A stretch of 33,918 nt of DNA from Methanocella sp. PtaU1.Bin125 (GTDB lineage: Archaea > Halobacteriota > Methanocellia > Methanocellales > Methanocellaceae), in NCBI GenBank assembly GCA_002067315.1, contig MVRA01000060.1, positions 1-33,918 of the forward strand. Direction: 5' to 3'. The number at the start of each line of letters is the position of its first letter. Positions within the stretch are counted from its first letter, which is position 1. A program made the translations under genes and the position numbers. Below are positions 4,038-21,357 of this stretch, in pieces. A model generated the notes under the pieces. That model made no database searches and was not told the origin of the DNA. It saw only the letters and a list, made by a program, of their open reading frames with translations.

Positions 4038-4241
4038 TCGCCGTTCGGCCTCTTTGCCCTTCTGGATGAGCTCGCGTACCCTGCTGCCGCCCTTCACGCC
4101 ACCCTTGTGACCGATCTCCTCGTAGAACCGGTGGTCGTGCGATTTCGACGTCGCCTCCCCGCCCTTACGGCCTGCTTCCCTGACGCTCATGCCGCCTTTT
4201 GCTGTCGTTTCCATCCTCCTGGCCATATCATCACCAGACAT
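4035..4241 (-). CDS. Small KGG-motif (stress-type) protein
   Basis: A 68-residue very hydrophilic protein with KGG/GG repeats: AKGGMSVREAGRKGGEA near residues 14-30 and IGHKGGVKGG near 43-52. These repeats are typical of GsiB/Em-like and KGG-type small proteins linked to desiccation or general stress in bacteria and archaea. It is probably intrinsically disordered; the molecular role is unproven. Several in-frame starts are possible (4241, 4226, 4211). The longest is given, since the AGGAGG in this region touches the ATG at 4211 directly and cannot serve it as a ribosome-binding site. Convergent with pcn and sharing its terminator. Confidence 0.8.
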   Translation of the reverse strand: MSGDDMARRMETTAKGGMSVREAGRKGGEATSKSHDHRFYEEIGHKGGVKGGSRVRELIQKGKEAERR

Positions 4242-4288
4242 CTCATCAGCCGTATATCAAAATTAACATGACCCTTAGAAAGAGCAAA

Positions 4289-4342
4289 CACGGAGGCCAC
4301 GGAGACCACAAAGGGCACGGCGGACACGGGGGACAGGGATGT
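4289..4342. repeat. Degenerate 9-bp tandem repeat (six units)
   Basis: Six consecutive nonamers can be read in register: cacggaggc, cacggagac, cacaaaggg, cacggcgga, cacggggga, cagggatgt. The unit is purine-rich with an invariant CA start. It lies in the 283-base gap between the KGG gene and priL, which otherwise holds a TATA-like attataaaag at 4473-4482 suited to priL. No coding function is convincing, since reading frames here are open only by composition. Confidence 0.75.
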
Positions 4343-4524
4343 CAAAAAGGGTACGGGCGAGACGGTGGAGAGGCCATTTTCCGCCCGGAACGGCAACATG
4401 CAATATATGTCACGGCTCTCTATAGCTCCCGCAGCCATTGCACTGGATAAAGTTTTTACAGGGGGTGCGACCATTATAAAAGAGACGGCCAGTCCCTCAA
4501 AGGGCCTGCGCCCGGGAGCCCGCC

Positions 4525-5604
4525 ATGGACACGATCGCCTATGCCAAGTACCCGTTTACCCTGGAGGCATCCCTGTACGTCAAGGACCGGCAGTACTCGA
4601 TCGAGGACGTGATCGTCAGGCCGGCCTACGAGCAGGTCCGCACCAGGGCGAAGCGGCGAATCCTCGACGCGATCGGGGGCAACGCCCGTCCGGGAGACCG
4701 GCTCCCGGACCCGGAGCGCGAGCTGCTCTCGTACCCGGTGGCGCGCATCATGGTGGCCTCGACCGGCGACCAGTACCTGATCAAACGTTTTGCGGTGTGG
4801 GAGTCCAAGCGCGCTTACTCGCTGCTGCTCGCGGAGCCCGAGTCCGGGCTCATAGCCGTAGGGAGCGACTTCGGCATCAACGCCCGCATCAAAGACCGCG
4901 AGTTCGTGCTGCACTTTACAGACTACCTGAAGTATGCGGCAGGGCTCAGGGATACCGAGTGGAAGCTGATCAACCGGAAGATCATCAGCGGCATGGTCTA
5001 CGTGCCAAAAGAGAAGTTCGCCCGGCTCCTCGAGGAGGCGGTGCGCGAGAAGGTCCAGTCGGGCCTGACAGGGAAAGTCCCGGAGACCGTTGCCATGGCG
5101 CTCGAGCCGTACATGGCCGAGATCAGGGCGGCGCTGGACGTGCTGAAGGCCGAGCGCAACATCGCCGCGGACGGCGAAGTGAGCGAGGACGCGTTCCCCC
5201 CGTGCATGAAAGCGCTGCTGGCCGACCTGCAGAAAGGCGTAAACCTGCCCCATACGGCCCGTTTCGCCCTCACGTCGTTTCTGGCCAACATCGGGCTGGA
5301 CAAGGAGCAGATCATGGAGCTCTACCGGATGGCCCCGGACTTCCGGGAGGATTTAACGCGGTATCAGGTAGAGCATATCACCGGGGGCAGCGGTACCGAG
5401 TACACGGCGCCGTCCTGCAAGACCATGATGACGTACGGGAACTGTATCGGTAAAAACCCTTATTGCGACTGGGTCACTCACCCGCTGAGCTACTACCGTA
5501 AGGCCATGTTCCGCCGGGCAAAGCTCAAGACGGGGCCGGCCCCTGCGACCGGCGGCAATCAGGCAGCGGCCGATGACGGGGGTAAGCCTGCCGACAGTCG
5601 ATAG
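4525..5604 (+). CDS. priL: DNA primase large subunit (Fe-S)
   Basis: A 359-residue PriL, the non-catalytic partner of PriS in the archaeal/eukaryotic primase that makes primers for replication. The C-terminal domain has the four cysteines expected to bind a 4Fe-4S cluster: C227 in FPPCMKALL, C298 in APSCKTMM, C307 in YGNCIG and C314 in PYCDWVTHP. The N-terminal MDTIAYAKYPFTLEAS also fits. A short disordered tail follows residue 335 or so. A TATA-like attataaaag lies 43-52 bases upstream. No PriS gene is in this window. Close linkage to pcn and tfs fits a replication role. Confidence 0.96.
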   Translation: MDTIAYAKYPFTLEASLYVKDRQYSIEDVIVRPAYEQVRTRAKRRILDAIGGNARPGDRLPDPERELLSYPVARIMVASTGDQYLIKRFAVWESKRAYSLLLAEPESGLIAVGSDFGINARIKDREFVLHFTDYLKYAAGLRDTEWKLINRKIISGMVYVPKEKFARLLEEAVREKVQSGLTGKVPETVAMALEPYMAEIRAALDVLKAERNIAADGEVSEDAFPPCMKALLADLQKGVNLPHTARFALTSFLANIGLDKEQIMELYRMAPDFREDLTRYQVEHITGGSGTEYTAPSCKTMMTYGNCIGKNPYCDWVTHPLSYYRKAMFRRAKLKTGPAPATGGNQAAADDGGKPADSR

Positions 5605-12553: not shown

Positions 12554-13462
12554 TCATCGTTTAACGACGGGGAGCAGGAGACGCTTATAACAAGGCGGAT
12601 ACCAGAGGTATCCATGCAGCCGGAGCGGGTCGATCAGCTCGATGCCATCACCATTCCGGGCCGCGGTCACTATGTAAGAATGATATCGCATCCGCTTCGC
12701 CTCGGGACGGGCCATCTGCAGGCTGATCTCTTCGCGGGAGACGCCGGCGAGCTTCGGGAACTCGGTCGCGGGCTGCCTGCCGTTCAGCAGGTGGTAGCCG
12801 TAGACGCGGTAGGCGTCGGCACTCTCTGCAATAATGAGCCAGCGCACCAGGTCGAACCCGGGTATAGCCCGGCCGCCGGACCGGGCGGAAACGTACAGTT
12901 TCAACGCTCCGCTCAGGAGGACCACCAGCGTAAAGAAGCCCCCGTAAACCCAGGGTTCCGCGATGCTGGCCCTCCCGGCCACGATGAAAACGCCAAACAC
13001 GAGACTGGCGAAGAGGAGATAGGGTGTCGGGCCCGCCGCGATCCCCAGGGTGAACTTCCGGTCGGTCACGGGATAAAGCAGCGGGATGCCGGGGAACGCG
13101 AGGAAGTCGAGAAGGAGATGCGAGAGCGCTCCGGCCAGTGTGGCGGCCATGGCAGGCAGCAGCGGCGTGCCGTAGCCGGCCAAGGCCATAACGGGCAGGG
13201 CGACGAGCGCGGCCGATAGCGCTACTATGAGAGCGCCGGCGAAGCTGTGGGTGAAGCCGCCGTGCGTCAGGATGTATAGCCGCGGGTCCCGGTCTGAGAA
13301 GCGCTGGAACGTGACGTCGATGTCCGGCGCTACGGCGCCCAGCACGGCGAACGGTATCAGCTCTGGAAGGCCGGCGACGGCGCACACGGCGCTGATGGCA
13401 AGGGCGTGCGTCAGGCTGTCCACGTTAAAAAATGCGAGACTAACGGATAAAAAGGTTGTCAC
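12554..13462 (-). CDS. YdjM/DUF457-type membrane-bound metal-dependent hydrolase
   Basis: A 302-residue polytopic membrane protein of the YdjM (DUF457) group. Family marks are the start-proximal DSLTHALAISAV, APDIDV, the HGGFTHS motif and SHLLLDFLAFPG, whose His and Asp residues are thought to bind a metal in the membrane. About four or five hydrophobic segments occupy the first 190 residues and a soluble tail follows. Substrate unknown. The GTG at 13462 lies about 25 bases after an AT-rich TATA-like site; a GTG at 13423 (VDSLTHA) would match the family's usual beginning and is a serious alternative. Confidence 0.83.
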   Translation of the reverse strand: MTTFLSVSLAFFNVDSLTHALAISAVCAVAGLPELIPFAVLGAVAPDIDVTFQRFSDRDPRLYILTHGGFTHSFAGALIVALSAALVALPVMALAGYGTPLLPAMAATLAGALSHLLLDFLAFPGIPLLYPVTDRKFTLGIAAGPTPYLLFASLVFGVFIVAGRASIAEPWVYGGFFTLVVLLSGALKLYVSARSGGRAIPGFDLVRWLIIAESADAYRVYGYHLLNGRQPATEFPKLAGVSREEISLQMARPEAKRMRYHSYIVTAARNGDGIELIDPLRLHGYLWYPPCYKRLLLPVVKR

Positions 13463-13572
13463 GCCATATTAATGATATCAATTTGATATTTTTATTATAC
13501 TTTATGATAGCATTTTGATTAATACTTTAGTAATAGCTAACTATAAATATTATCATATCGATATCAGTATTC
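13463..13572. promoter_or_regulatory. AT-rich divergent promoter
   Basis: A sharply AT-rich 110-base gap between divergent genes. It contains ctataaatattat at 13539-13551, 22-34 bases before the ATG at 13573, so that gene is probably leaderless. aaaaatatc read leftward near 13485-13493 suits the GTG at 13462. Repeated gatat motifs (gatatcaatttgatatt at 13474-13490, atcgatatc at 13558-13566) may be regulator sites. Confidence 0.55.
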
Positions 13573-14034
13573 ATGCGTACGCCCGGGCAGCGAAAAGAGA
13601 TTTACGAAATCGTGAAGGCCCGCCTCGCGCAGGGGATGAGTGGCCGGGCCGCCCGGGCGAATATCGATTACGACGGCAAGGTCTTCGACCTTGACTTCAA
13701 GACCTGGAAAACGTACGCTGCAGAGTTCGACGGCTCCCTGCCCGAAGTTCGGGCGACCTCCCATCCCTCCCCGGACAGGGAGCTGATCGTGACGCCTGCC
13801 GCCGCCCCCGCTTTATTTACGGCTCCCGCTACACCGTACCGGCATGCCGGCCGCAGGCCCGGCGTCCACAAGACGCGGTTCCTGGTCGCGCTGTCTGACA
13901 GCCGCCTGGAGCAGCTCAAGGCCGAAGCGTTGCGGAAAGACAAGACGTATGCCGCGCTGGCGGTGGACTACATCATCGAAGGCCTGGAGCGCGTGGAAAA
14001 AAGCCGGGGGCAGGCGGCCCGGGATCAGCAATAG
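13573..14034 (+). CDS. Putative DNA-binding protein (ribbon-helix-helix-like C-terminus)
   Basis: A 153-residue protein of no family I recognise. The N-terminal half (GQRKEIYEIVKARLAQGMSG) is helical and basic. A Pro/Ala-rich linker at about residues 62-90 leads to a C-terminal part beginning KTRFLVALSDSRLEQLKAEA, whose beta strand then two helices with regular spacing resembles ribbon-helix-helix DNA-binding domains (strand TRFLVAL, helices SRLEQLKAEALRK and YAALAVDYIIEGLERVE). It may be a regulator of itself or of the divergent membrane gene, with which it shares an AT-rich promoter. Its last ten bases overlap the end of the convergent secreted-protein gene. Confidence 0.68.
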   Translation: MRTPGQRKEIYEIVKARLAQGMSGRAARANIDYDGKVFDLDFKTWKTYAAEFDGSLPEVRATSHPSPDRELIVTPAAAPALFTAPATPYRHAGRRPGVHKTRFLVALSDSRLEQLKAEALRKDKTYAALAVDYIIEGLERVEKSRGQAARDQQ

Positions 14035-14312
14035 CCCGGGGAAAGGCACCCCGGCCCGCCCGGCGTCGTGTTTTCGCCAGGACAGCCCGGACATCCGGGA
14101 CACCCGTAACTGTACACATAGCAGCCGGGCTCCGCGGGATTCCGCGGAACAGGGTTATCCGGACAGCCCGGACATCCGGGACACCCGAACGGTACGTAAG
14201 CTCCGCCGTACAAAGGCGCCACCCCACAGGCAGGCCATGCCTGTGCCACAACGGTGGCCGGCATCAAAGCGAAAAGGGCGATGAGTGCCAGTATCACGAT
14301 TAAAGCTCTCAT
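14025..14312 (-). CDS. Secreted Cys-rich protein with duplicated CPGCPGCP motif
   Basis: A 95-residue predicted secreted protein, not recognised. Residues 1-23 are a typical signal peptide (MRALIVILALIALFALMPATVVA). The mature part is rich in Cys, Gly and Pro, with ten cysteines at 29, 44, 47, 50, 64, 71, 74, 77, 89 and 95. Two identical GCPGCPGCP motifs lie exactly 27 residues apart, each preceded by an aromatic residue. At DNA level a 26-bp segment is repeated exactly at 14081-14106 and 14162-14187. CxxCxxC triads suggest metal or Fe-S ligation or disulfide crosslinking; this is inference. The ATG at 14312 is chosen because gtgatc, complementary to the archaeal 16S tail, lies just upstream. 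Ends 10 bases inside the convergent gene. Confidence 0.75.
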   Translation of the reverse strand: MRALIVILALIALFALMPATVVAQAWPACGVAPLYGGAYVPFGCPGCPGCPDNPVPRNPAEPGCYVYSYGCPGCPGCPGENTTPGGPGCLSPGYC

Positions 14313-14445
14313 GTCGATCACTTTCGATCTGCTCTACAGACATTGATAAATACCAATCCGCCGCATTCTGCGGTACGATAACGAGAGCGAGCCGGCCGCG
14401 CGACCGGCATCCGGACATGAAACGCCGCAATGAGGTCCTACCCCC

Positions 14446-16500
14446 ATGCACCTGATCATCACCGAGAAGCACGACGCCGCCAGCAAGATCGCGGCCATTC
14501 TTTTCCCCGACCACGCGCAGGAGCGCGTCAACGGCGTGCCCGCGTACAGGTCGAGAGCAGCGGACGCGCTGGTCATCGGCCTCGCCGGCCACATCATGGA
14601 GCTGGACTTCCCGAAAGAGTACCAGAACTGGGGCGCCGTGCCGCCGCGCGGCCTGGCCCGGGCGAAGGTGATCACCTATCCGTCGAAGAAGGACATCGCC
14701 TCGGCGCTCTTGCAGCTCTCGACCGCTGCGACGCGGGTCACCATTGCGACGGACTACGACCGGGAAGGCGAGGCCATCGGCGTGGAGGCGTACCGGATCG
14801 TCAAAAAGGCGGCTAACCCGGTTTTTGACAGGGTGCACTATAGCTCGTTTACGAAAGAGGAGATCACGAAAGCGTTCGCGAAGCCGGTGCCCATTGATTT
14901 CAACCTGTCGGCGGCCGCCGAGTGCCGGCAGGAGATCGACCTCGTCTGGGGTGCTTCGCTCACTCGTTTTGTCTCCATCGTCAGCAATAAAAGGGGAAAG
15001 GAGTTCCTGTCCGTGGGCAGAGTACAGACGCCGCTGCTGGCCCTGATCGTCGACCGGGACAAGGAGATCAACGCCTTCAAGTCGAAGCCCTACTGGGAGA
15101 TCGTCGCCACGCTGCTGAAAGGCGACGTCGCGTTCACGGCGTCGCATCGACATGGCCGTTTCGATAAAAAGGAAGAGGCGGCTGCCATTTATAAAAAGCT
15201 GGGAAAGACCGCCATCGTGAAGGACCTCGTGACCGAGCGGAAGAAAGAGCCCGCCCCGATACCATTTAACACGACAGAGTTCCTGAAGGCGGCGAGTGCC
15301 CTGGGATTCACGGCATCTACCGCCATGCAGATCGCCGAAAAGCTGTACATGGACGGCTGGATCTCGTACCCGCGTACGGACAACACGGTATATCCTGACA
15401 CGCTGAACCTGAAGGATATCGTCGTCCTGTTCAAGGACAGCCCCGAGTTCGTGAAGAACGCCGTCGTCACCCTCGCGCAGCCGCAGCTGGTCCCGACCCG
15501 AGGAAAGGTGGAGAGCAAGGACCACCCGCCCATCTACCCGGTCGCCTGCGCCCGGAAGACGGCGCTTGACGACCGCCACTGGAAGCTGTACGAGCTGGTC
15601 GTCCGGCGGTTTTTCGCCACGCTGTCCGGCCCCTGCGAGTGGGACGCGACGAAGGCGGCCATCGATATCAGCGGCGAGCCTTTCGTGGCCGGCGGCAAGA
15701 ACCTCGCTGTCGCCGGATGGCGTTTCCACTATCCCTACGGCACCCCGAAAGACGAGATACTGCCCGCGCTGGCCGTCGGCGATGTGCTCCCCGTGAAGAA
15801 GGCCGACCTGCTGGAGAAGAAGACCGAGCCCCCCAAGCGCTACGGCCAGGGCAAGCTCATCCAGATGATGGAAGACCTCGGCCTGGGCACGAAAGCGACC
15901 CGGCACGAGGCGTTAACAAAATTATACAGCCGCGGCTTCATCGAAGGAAATCCCCCGAAGCCCACGGCCCTCGGCATCAGCCTGATCGACGCGCTGAAGG
16001 CCCATGCCGCCACGGTCACCAGCAACGCCATGACCAGCCGCCTGGAGAAGGACATGGACGGCATCGCCGGCAGCACCCTCCCGAAGGACGCCGTGCTCCG
16101 CGAGTCCCGGGACATGCTGGAGAAGGTGTTCGACCAGCTGGAGGCCCACGGCGCCGAGATCGGGCGGATGCTCCGCAGCGGGTCGGCGGCCGACAGCAAG
16201 ATCGGGCCCTGTCCGCTGTGCGGCAGCCCTCTGATTATCAGGGAGCGGAAGGCGGACGGGAACAAGTTCATCGCCTGCAGCGGTTTCCCCAACTGCCGGA
16301 ATACGTACAACGTCCCGGCGGGCACGCTGAAGTTCGATAAGCAGGTCTGCGAGAAGCACCATATGCATCTCATTAAAGTCACGCCGCCGGCGGTGATGAT
16401 GGCCGACGGTAAAAAGGTTAAAGGAAAAGCATATGAATACGGGTGCCCGGCGTGCAAGAAAGAAGTTACTACTATAAAAACCAGCTCTGGATCTGCCTAG
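14446..16500 (+). CDS. topA: DNA topoisomerase I (type IA)
   Basis: A 684-residue type IA topoisomerase, which relaxes negative supercoils by cutting one strand through a 5'-phosphotyrosine. The TOPRIM domain is at residues 1-140 (MHLIITEKHDAASKIA; acidic triad region TDYDREGEAIG). The catalytic tyrosine is Y308 in DGWISYPRTDN. The C-terminus has a four-Cys zinc finger at C589, C592, C611 and C617 (CPLCGS and CSGFPNC) and a second possible metal site at C635 with neighbouring histidines (CEKHHMH) plus C667 and C670 (CPAC). Archaeal topA length is normal. Composite inverted repeat begins 13 bases after its stop. Confidence 0.97.
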   Translation: MHLIITEKHDAASKIAAILFPDHAQERVNGVPAYRSRAADALVIGLAGHIMELDFPKEYQNWGAVPPRGLARAKVITYPSKKDIASALLQLSTAATRVTIATDYDREGEAIGVEAYRIVKKAANPVFDRVHYSSFTKEEITKAFAKPVPIDFNLSAAAECRQEIDLVWGASLTRFVSIVSNKRGKEFLSVGRVQTPLLALIVDRDKEINAFKSKPYWEIVATLLKGDVAFTASHRHGRFDKKEEAAAIYKKLGKTAIVKDLVTERKKEPAPIPFNTTEFLKAASALGFTASTAMQIAEKLYMDGWISYPRTDNTVYPDTLNLKDIVVLFKDSPEFVKNAVVTLAQPQLVPTRGKVESKDHPPIYPVACARKTALDDRHWKLYELVVRRFFATLSGPCEWDATKAAIDISGEPFVAGGKNLAVAGWRFHYPYGTPKDEILPALAVGDVLPVKKADLLEKKTEPPKRYGQGKLIQMMEDLGLGTKATRHEALTKLYSRGFIEGNPPKPTALGISLIDALKAHAATVTSNAMTSRLEKDMDGIAGSTLPKDAVLRESRDMLEKVFDQLEAHGAEIGRMLRSGSAADSKIGPCPLCGSPLIIRERKADGNKFIACSGFPNCRNTYNVPAGTLKFDKQVCEKHHMHLIKVTPPAVMMADGKKVKGKAYEYGCPACKKEVTTIKTSSGSA

Positions 16501-20172: not shown

Positions 20173-21357
20173 ATGAATACAGAGCTAGTAGATGTACTGT
20201 TGTTGTTCCTTAAGTACCTTAGGCAAGACGATGACGGGATGAAGAACATTTTAACCTGGCTGTACAACGCTATCATGCAAGTGGAGGCGGAGTTGCAGGC
20301 TGGCTGTTCTTCGTACGAGAGAAACAACGATCGCCGGTTGCACAGGAACGGTTACAAGAAGAGAACCTTGAAAACGGTGCACGGGGATCTGGTCCTGGAC
20401 AAGCCCCAGTTTCGCGAAGAAGGCTTCACTACAGTGATATTCGAGGCATACGGTCGGGTGGAGAAAGCGGTGATCAGCCTTGTTGGCGAATCCTACCTGT
20501 TGGGGATTAGCACCCGGAAGATCGAGGAGATGCTATCTAAACTGGGCATCGATGGATTCTCGGCGGCCAGCGTCTCAAAGATCAACAAGGAGCTGGACGA
20601 GCAGGTCCACGCTTTTTTAGAGAGACCGTTAGGCCGGGTGGTCTACATGTACGTGGACGCTACTTACTTTCGTGTCCGTGAGGGCGCCCGTTACGTTACG
20701 AAGGCGCTGCTCATCGTGGTGGGCGTGGACCAGGACGGCTACCGACAAGTGCTGGGAGCGAGGATCTGCGAGTCGGAGAGCGAAGAATGGTGGACCAGCA
20801 TGTTCGAAGACTTGCAGCGCCGTGGATTGTATGGCGTGTTGATGGTGATTAGCGATGGGCATCGGGGGATCAAGGCCGCAGTGCAGAAATGCTTCTTGGG
20901 AGCCTCATGGCAGTATTGTCAGGTGCATTTCGTCAGGAACGTGATGAAAAAGGTGCCCCAGAAACGGAGACGAGAGATCGCAGGCCTGATCAGAGCGTGC
21001 AGGGAAGATCCTCGTGCTATGGCCAATCTTTCGGACGCGTTAAACGAGCAAGGCCTGGAAGCAGCGAGCAGGATGATCGATAGCTGCATGGCAGACCTGT
21101 TCAACTACATGGCCTTCCCTAAAATGTTCTGGAAAAAGATAAGGACCACGAACCTGTTAGAGAACACGAATCGCAAGCTTAAACAACGAAGCAAGGTCGT
21201 TGGCGCCTTTCCAGGAGACGCATCGTTGCTAAGACTCGCGGTAACAATACTCATGGACACAGAAGAGGAATGGAAATACGGGCACAGGCTTATCGACCTG
21301 GAAGACAATCCGATCAACGAGACAGGGCCGATTATACAAATTACAGAAAATTTTTAA
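20173..21357 (+). CDS. IS256-family (mutator type) transposase
   Basis: A 394-residue DDE transposase. The first catalytic Asp is in VVYMYVDATYFRVRE (about residue 163), the second in VLMVISDGHRGIKAA (about 228) and the Glu in RTTNLLENTNRKLKQRSKVVGAFP (about 334), with the family's CQVHFVRN between. Full length for the family and with no frameshift. A ribosome-binding site taggag precedes the ATG. Codon use is less GC-biased than in neighbouring genes, consistent with transfer. The gene ends seven bases before the right end of the element. Confidence 0.97.
   Translation: MNTELVDVLLLFLKYLRQDDDGMKNILTWLYNAIMQVEAELQAGCSSYERNNDRRLHRNGYKKRTLKTVHGDLVLDKPQFREEGFTTVIFEAYGRVEKAVISLVGESYLLGISTRKIEEMLSKLGIDGFSAASVSKINKELDEQVHAFLERPLGRVVYMYVDATYFRVREGARYVTKALLIVVGVDQDGYRQVLGARICESESEEWWTSMFEDLQRRGLYGVLMVISDGHRGIKAAVQKCFLGASWQYCQVHFVRNVMKKVPQKRRREIAGLIRACREDPRAMANLSDALNEQGLEAASRMIDSCMADLFNYMAFPKMFWKKIRTTNLLENTNRKLKQRSKVVGAFPGDASLLRLAVTILMDTEEEWKYGHRLIDLEDNPINETGPIIQITENF

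What the first reader, a model, noticed from the sequence alone, without database searches (positions are those of the whole stretch)
14025..14312. Secreted protein with exactly duplicated CPGCPGCP modules
Ten cysteines in 95 residues, two identical CxxCxxC triads 27 residues apart, a clean signal peptide and a perfect 26-bp DNA duplication are all visible. I know no named family with this pattern. It could be a metal-binding or crosslinked surface peptide, possibly still expanding by unit duplication. Its gene overlaps the convergent putative DNA-binding gene by ten bases.
Basis: partly seen in the sequence, partly recalled or inferred. Interest (0 to 1): 0.65.

Follow-up and report, generated by a model that had tools for sequence, protein, structure and literature searches.

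The report
Methanogen-specific secreted cysteine-unit protein
A small exported protein of soil methanogens (Methanocella and relatives) is built from one or two copies of a short cysteine-proline-glycine unit; it is a real, conserved but unnamed family, probably binding metal ions or cross-linking at the cell surface, and its function is untested.

Summary
Window 14025-14312 (-) encodes a 95-aa protein with 10 Cys, a signal-peptide-like N-terminus and two GCPGCPGCP cores 27 residues apart, lying in a perfect 27-bp direct repeat. It is a gene, not a chance frame: two other Methanocellaceae carry homologues (117 aa with two units at the same locus; 60 aa with one unit elsewhere), and every DNA difference between cores is at a third codon position. 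In 295 genomes of the phylum the core's codon pattern occurs only in these three genes (5 hits, 0 for the reversed control). No convincing relative was found outside Methanocellaceae, and no Pfam, NCBIfam or PHROGs family matches. The unit is C-x2-C-x2-C-x(11-14)-C, four cysteines each. The two-unit layout probably predates the split of the two closest species, so "still expanding" is not supported; the identity of the cores looks like local homogenisation. Most likely it is an exported, largely disordered thiol-rich peptide whose units each bind a metal ion. A disulfide-linked surface peptide is the close rival, but DsbA- and VKOR-type thiol oxidases were not found in two of the three carriers. 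Function is inferred, not shown.

The parts
14025..14312 (-). Gene for the 95-aa exported Cys-rich protein (start ATG at 14312, stop codon at 14027-14025)
   Evidence: ORF list; homologues in G001 and G003; core codon differences all synonymous
14238..14312 (-). Signal-peptide-like N-terminus (residues 1-25, hydrophobic core, AQA before WP)
   Evidence: Hydrophobicity; VVAQA conserved in G001; helix only at residues 2-15 of the model. Cleavage site inferred
14160..14186 (-). Unit 1 core GCPGCPGCP (residues 43-51)
14121..14159 (-). Unit 1 tail DNPVPRNPAEPGC with the fourth Cys (residues 52-64)
   Evidence: aligned in all three species
14079..14105 (-). Unit 2 core GCPGCPGCP (residues 70-78)
14046..14078 (-). 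Unit 2 tail GENTTPGGPGC with the fourth Cys and an N-T-T sequon (NAT at the matching place in G001)
14343..14352 (-). TATA-like A+T-rich stretch about 30 bp upstream of the start codon; candidate archaeal promoter
   Evidence: read from the sequence; not tested
13573..14034 (+). Convergent orphan ORF (153 aa), overlaps the gene's 3' end by 10 bp; typical coding composition; not part of the conserved locus
12554..13462 (-). YdjM-family (metal-dependent hydrolase-like) membrane protein; conserved neighbour, same direction
14446..16500 (+). DNA topoisomerase I; conserved divergent neighbour

Best explanation
The gene encodes a small protein exported by the general secretory route. After removal of the signal peptide, a roughly 70-residue Gly/Pro/Cys/Tyr-rich, nearly uncharged and largely unstructured chain is left outside the membrane. 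It consists of one or two autonomous units C-x2-C-x2-C-x(11-14)-C. Each unit wraps its four thiolates around one metal ion (for example zinc, iron, nickel or copper), the Pro-Gly spacers giving the turns. Shown here: the gene, its conservation, the four-Cys unit and its restriction to Methanocellaceae among the genomes searched. Inferred: export, metal binding and surface location.
For: Homologues in two relatives (E 2.7e-16 and 2.1e-8) with an invariant GCPGCPGCPDNP and a fourth Cys. All 3-7 core differences between species fall at third positions, while only 21 of 81 possible single changes would be silent. The unit keeps four Cys whether present once (G003) or twice. Signal-like N-terminus in all three. 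No predicted fold beyond the signal helix, mean pLDDT 46, as expected of a metal-folded peptide but also of a poor alignment. No VKOR in any of the four genomes and DsbA-type proteins only in G001, so G000 and G003 lack the usual means of oxidising these thiols; an anaerobic reducing habitat also favours free thiolates (general knowledge).
Against: No metal, expression or localisation data. No metal-transport gene lies directly beside it. Cys-Pro-Gly-Cys also suits disulfide loops. No metallothionein or zinc-ribbon profile matches. DsbB, DsbD and CcdA were not searched. Three sequences are a thin basis.
Confidence: 0.42

Rival explanations
1. A structural surface peptide: the Cys-Pro-Gly cores form disulfides within or between chains, stitching together a surface layer or extracellular matrix, as disulfides join the hoops of methanogen sheaths or as minicollagens polymerise.
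For: Gly/Pro/Tyr/Cys-rich, uncharged composition. The G001 protein has nine uninterrupted Gly-X-Y triplets ending in its second core and a sub-threshold collagen match (19.2 bits against a cut-off of 27.2). Sequon in unit 2 of both G000 and G001, with STT3 present in all four genomes. Methanogen sheaths do use disulfides (PMC6242892, PMC11576556). G001 has a DsbA-like protein.
Against: No VKOR in any of the four genomes, no DsbA-type protein in G000 or G003. Only three or four Gly-X-Y triplets per run in G000 and G003, too few for a triple helix (general knowledge). One gene per genome and a very short G003 form.
Confidence: 0.36
2. Each unit holds an iron-sulfur cluster, C-x2-C-x2-C...C, making an exported electron carrier.
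For: The spacing C-x2-C-x2-C plus a distant Cys is that of many [4Fe-4S] ligand sets (general knowledge); four Cys in all five units.
Against: No Fer4 or other Fe-S profile match; no twin-arginine motif in the N-terminus, whereas exported Fe-S proteins are usually loaded inside and exported by Tat (general knowledge); no fold to shield a cluster.
Confidence: 0.07
3. A weakly selected, lineage-specific small protein with a dispensable role, whose repeats arise by slippage or conversion of nine-base Gly-Cys-Pro coding units.
For: Patchy presence: absent from G002 and at another place in G003. Atypical third-position G+C (0.64 against 0.84) and negative codon score. Length varies from 60 to 117 aa.
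Against: Strictly silent core changes in every comparison between species; signal-like N-terminus and fourth Cys kept.
Confidence: 0.12
4. Not a gene: a chance open frame.
For: Codon score does not single out this frame among the six.
Against: Homologous proteins with the same signal-like start and unit in two other species; core changes only at third positions.
Confidence: 0.03

Closest known systems
Metallothioneins (named Pfam and NCBIfam families)
   Same: Small, Cys-rich, fold-less chain with C-x2-C motifs
   Different: Signal-like N-terminus, Pro/Gly-rich, almost no charge; no profile match
Cnidarian minicollagens
   Same: Short exported chain combining Cys-Pro-rich segments with Gly-X-Y triplets; they polymerise by disulfide reshuffling (PMC4863159, abstract)
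   Different: No sequence relation found; Gly-X-Y runs of only three or four triplets in two of three members; different Cys spacing (minicollagen spacing from memory)
Methanogen sheath proteins (MspA/SH)
   Same: Exported by methanogens; disulfides matter
   Different: MspA is a 40-61 kDa amyloid protein with one or two Cys; this is a small Cys-rich peptide
Collagen-like proteins (Pfam Collagen PF01391)
   Same: Gly-X-Y triplets; sub-threshold match of the G001 member
   Different: Below the curated cut-off; no match for G000 or G003

Membership tests
Unnamed Methanocellaceae family (this one) | Signal-like N-terminus plus GCPGCPGCP followed 11-14 residues after its last Cys by a fourth Cys | tested here: met
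   Three members: G000, G001, G003
Metallothionein | Match to a curated metallothionein profile | tested here: not met
   No Pfam or NCBIfam family at E up to 1
Metallothionein | Thiolate metal clusters in the purified protein | not testable with these tools
   Needs biochemistry
Collagen-like protein (PF01391) | Score above the curated cut-off | tested here: not met
   No match for G000 or G003; G001 19.2 bits against 27.2
Collagen-like protein (PF01391) | Long uninterrupted Gly-X-Y run | tested here: not met
   Runs of 3 and 4 triplets in G000, 3 and 9 in G001, 3 in G003
Ferredoxin-type Fe-S protein | Fer4-type profile match | tested here: not met
   None
c-type cytochrome | C-x2-C-H heme motif | tested here: not met
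   No His after any C-x2-C in the three proteins
Methanogen sheath protein MspA/SH | Large amyloid-forming protein with one or two Cys | tested here: not met
   95 aa, 10 Cys; MspA features from PMC6242892

The most novel reading that the evidence does not exclude
An exported metallothionein-like peptide family of methanogens in which a C-x2-C-x2-C...C unit works alone or in tandem outside the cell to capture or buffer metals, a kind of extracellular metal trap not described for methanogens in what I searched.
Probability: 0.2. Interest if true: 0.65.

Novelty: new variant of a known kind. Interest (0 to 1): 0.36.

Why it matters
Methanocella are important rice-field methanogens. A dedicated exported thiol peptide would bear on how they obtain or buffer the metals needed for methanogenesis, or on how they build their surface without the usual thiol oxidases. 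The family is small, has a sharply defined unit and occurs in cultured M. paludicola, so it can be tested directly. At present it is a conserved orphan without a demonstrated function.

Tried and rejected
Hits beyond Methanocellaceae were checked and rejected: three genomes of one genus (L037, L038, L040) and the other weak hits are off-frame or unrelated stretches without the core. The only viral hit (L057) lies in DNA just after a gene's stop codon, outside any listed ORF; a longer pattern found none. Plasmids and phages: no match. The PDB hit to a 780-residue collagen-like fibril has no significant single stretch. The AlphaFold model is too poor for a fold search. Weak hits within G000 itself are not genes of this kind. 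Papers: no occurrence of CPGCPGC and nothing specific on this protein.

Full report
What is there. The minus strand from 14312 to 14025 encodes a 95-residue protein: MRALIVILALIALFALMPATVVAQAWPACGVAPLYGGAYVPFGCPGCPGCPDNPVPRNPAEPGCYVYSYGCPGCPGCPGENTTPGGPGCLSPGYC. It has ten cysteines. The two GCPGCPGCP cores start at residues 43 and 70, 27 residues apart. They lie in a direct repeat of 27 identical bases: one base upstream plus the first 26 bases of the core. The last core base differs silently. The ORF overlaps the convergent ORF 13573-14034 by ten bases.

Is it a gene? Codon statistics do not decide it: third-position G+C is 0.64 against 0.84 in confident genes of the window, and no frame over this stretch scores well. 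Conservation does decide it. The searches of the family and of the class each return the same four genomes, and two of the other three carry a homologue. G001 (same genus; 3,179,916 bp, from memory the size of M. arvoryzae MRE50) has a 117-aa protein, E 2.7e-16. G003 has a 60-aa protein, E 2.1e-8. G003 has exactly the published M. paludicola chromosome length, 2,957,635 bp (PMC3146512). All three have a signal-like hydrophobic start, the invariant stretch GCPGCPGCPDNP in unit 1 and a fourth Cys after it. Between species the 27-base cores differ at 3 to 7 bases, in every case at third positions, whereas only 21 of 81 possible single-base changes would be silent. This indicates purifying selection on the peptide.

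How rare is it? The codon pattern for GCPGCPGCP occurs five times in 295 genomes of the phylum, all five in these three genes, with no occurrence of the reversed control pattern. A 24-residue unit query over 394 genomes gives the same three genomes; the four weak extras are off-frame or unrelated. Plasmid and phage records have nothing. Pfam, NCBIfam and PHROGs have no family.

Locus. Topoisomerase I and the YdjM-family gene are divergent neighbours in all four genomes. In G002 and G003 nothing of this kind lies between them. In G000 and G001 the Cys gene sits between them, in the direction of YdjM and divergent from topoisomerase. In G001 it ends 69 bp before YdjM, so co-transcription is possible there. 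In G000 an orphan ORF lies between the two; in G001 a DUF169 gene lies on the topoisomerase side. In G003 the Cys gene lies elsewhere, at 27.4 kb, beside a KGG stress-motif gene. G002 has none. The gene has therefore moved or been lost in this family, and the neighbours say little about its function.

The unit and its history. Each unit is C-x2-C-x2-C-x(11-14)-C. G003 has one; G000 and G001 have two. The unit 1 tails of G000 and G001 resemble each other far more (score 69.5) than the two tails within G000 (24.0) or within G001 (31.5). Unit 2 in both carries an N-x-T sequon and PGCL. The unit 2 tails of G000 and G001 align poorly by score (22.0), so the inference rests mainly on unit 1 and on position. 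The simplest reading is that two units existed before these species split, and that only the core of G000 was later homogenised (gene conversion or copying of nine-base repeats). G001 instead gained Gly-X-Y triplets: nine in a row ending in its second core. Unit duplication that is still going on is not supported.

Mechanism. Apart from the signal helix, AlphaFold gives no confident structure (mean pLDDT 46, three sequences), which is weak evidence for a chain without its own fold. Four cysteines per autonomous unit fit one metal ion or two disulfides. I looked for the oxidation machinery. VKOR is absent in all four genomes. DsbA-type proteins (PF13462, PF01323) occur only in G001, while the control genomes show that the searches work. 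So two of the three carriers lack these extracytoplasmic thiol oxidases. DsbB, DsbD and CcdA were not searched, G000 is a 219-contig assembly, and methanogen sheaths do contain disulfides (PMC6242892, PMC11576556). I therefore put metal binding only slightly ahead of disulfide cross-linking. STT3 oligosaccharyltransferases are present, so the sequon could be used. Export, metal binding and location remain inferences.

Verdict. A real, small, lineage-restricted exported Cys-unit family without a name. The kind (small secreted Cys-rich protein) is known; the unit is new to the libraries searched. Moderate interest, function open.

Noticed in passing
13573-14034 (+): 153-aa ORF with a ribbon-helix-helix-like C-terminal look and typical coding composition, but no Pfam, NCBIfam or PHROGs match and no homologue in the other Methanocellaceae; weak partial hits in two distant genomes (G017, G057).
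   Followed up: partly
1-98: Perfect 23-bp tandem array (TGCGGGCCGATCTAAGAGACCCC, 4.3 copies) at the very end of the contig; possibly why the assembly broke here.
   Followed up: no
20173-21357 (+): ORF of 394 aa that looks like an intact Mutator/IS256-type transposase (by reading, not searched).
   Followed up: no
13488-13537: AT-rich imperfect 24-bp tandem repeat upstream of the orphan ORF, in an otherwise G+C-rich window.
   Followed up: no
L018 (G001) 4118-4909: A DUF169 gene lies between topoisomerase I and the Cys gene in G001 only, so this stretch has received different genes in different species.
   Followed up: partly
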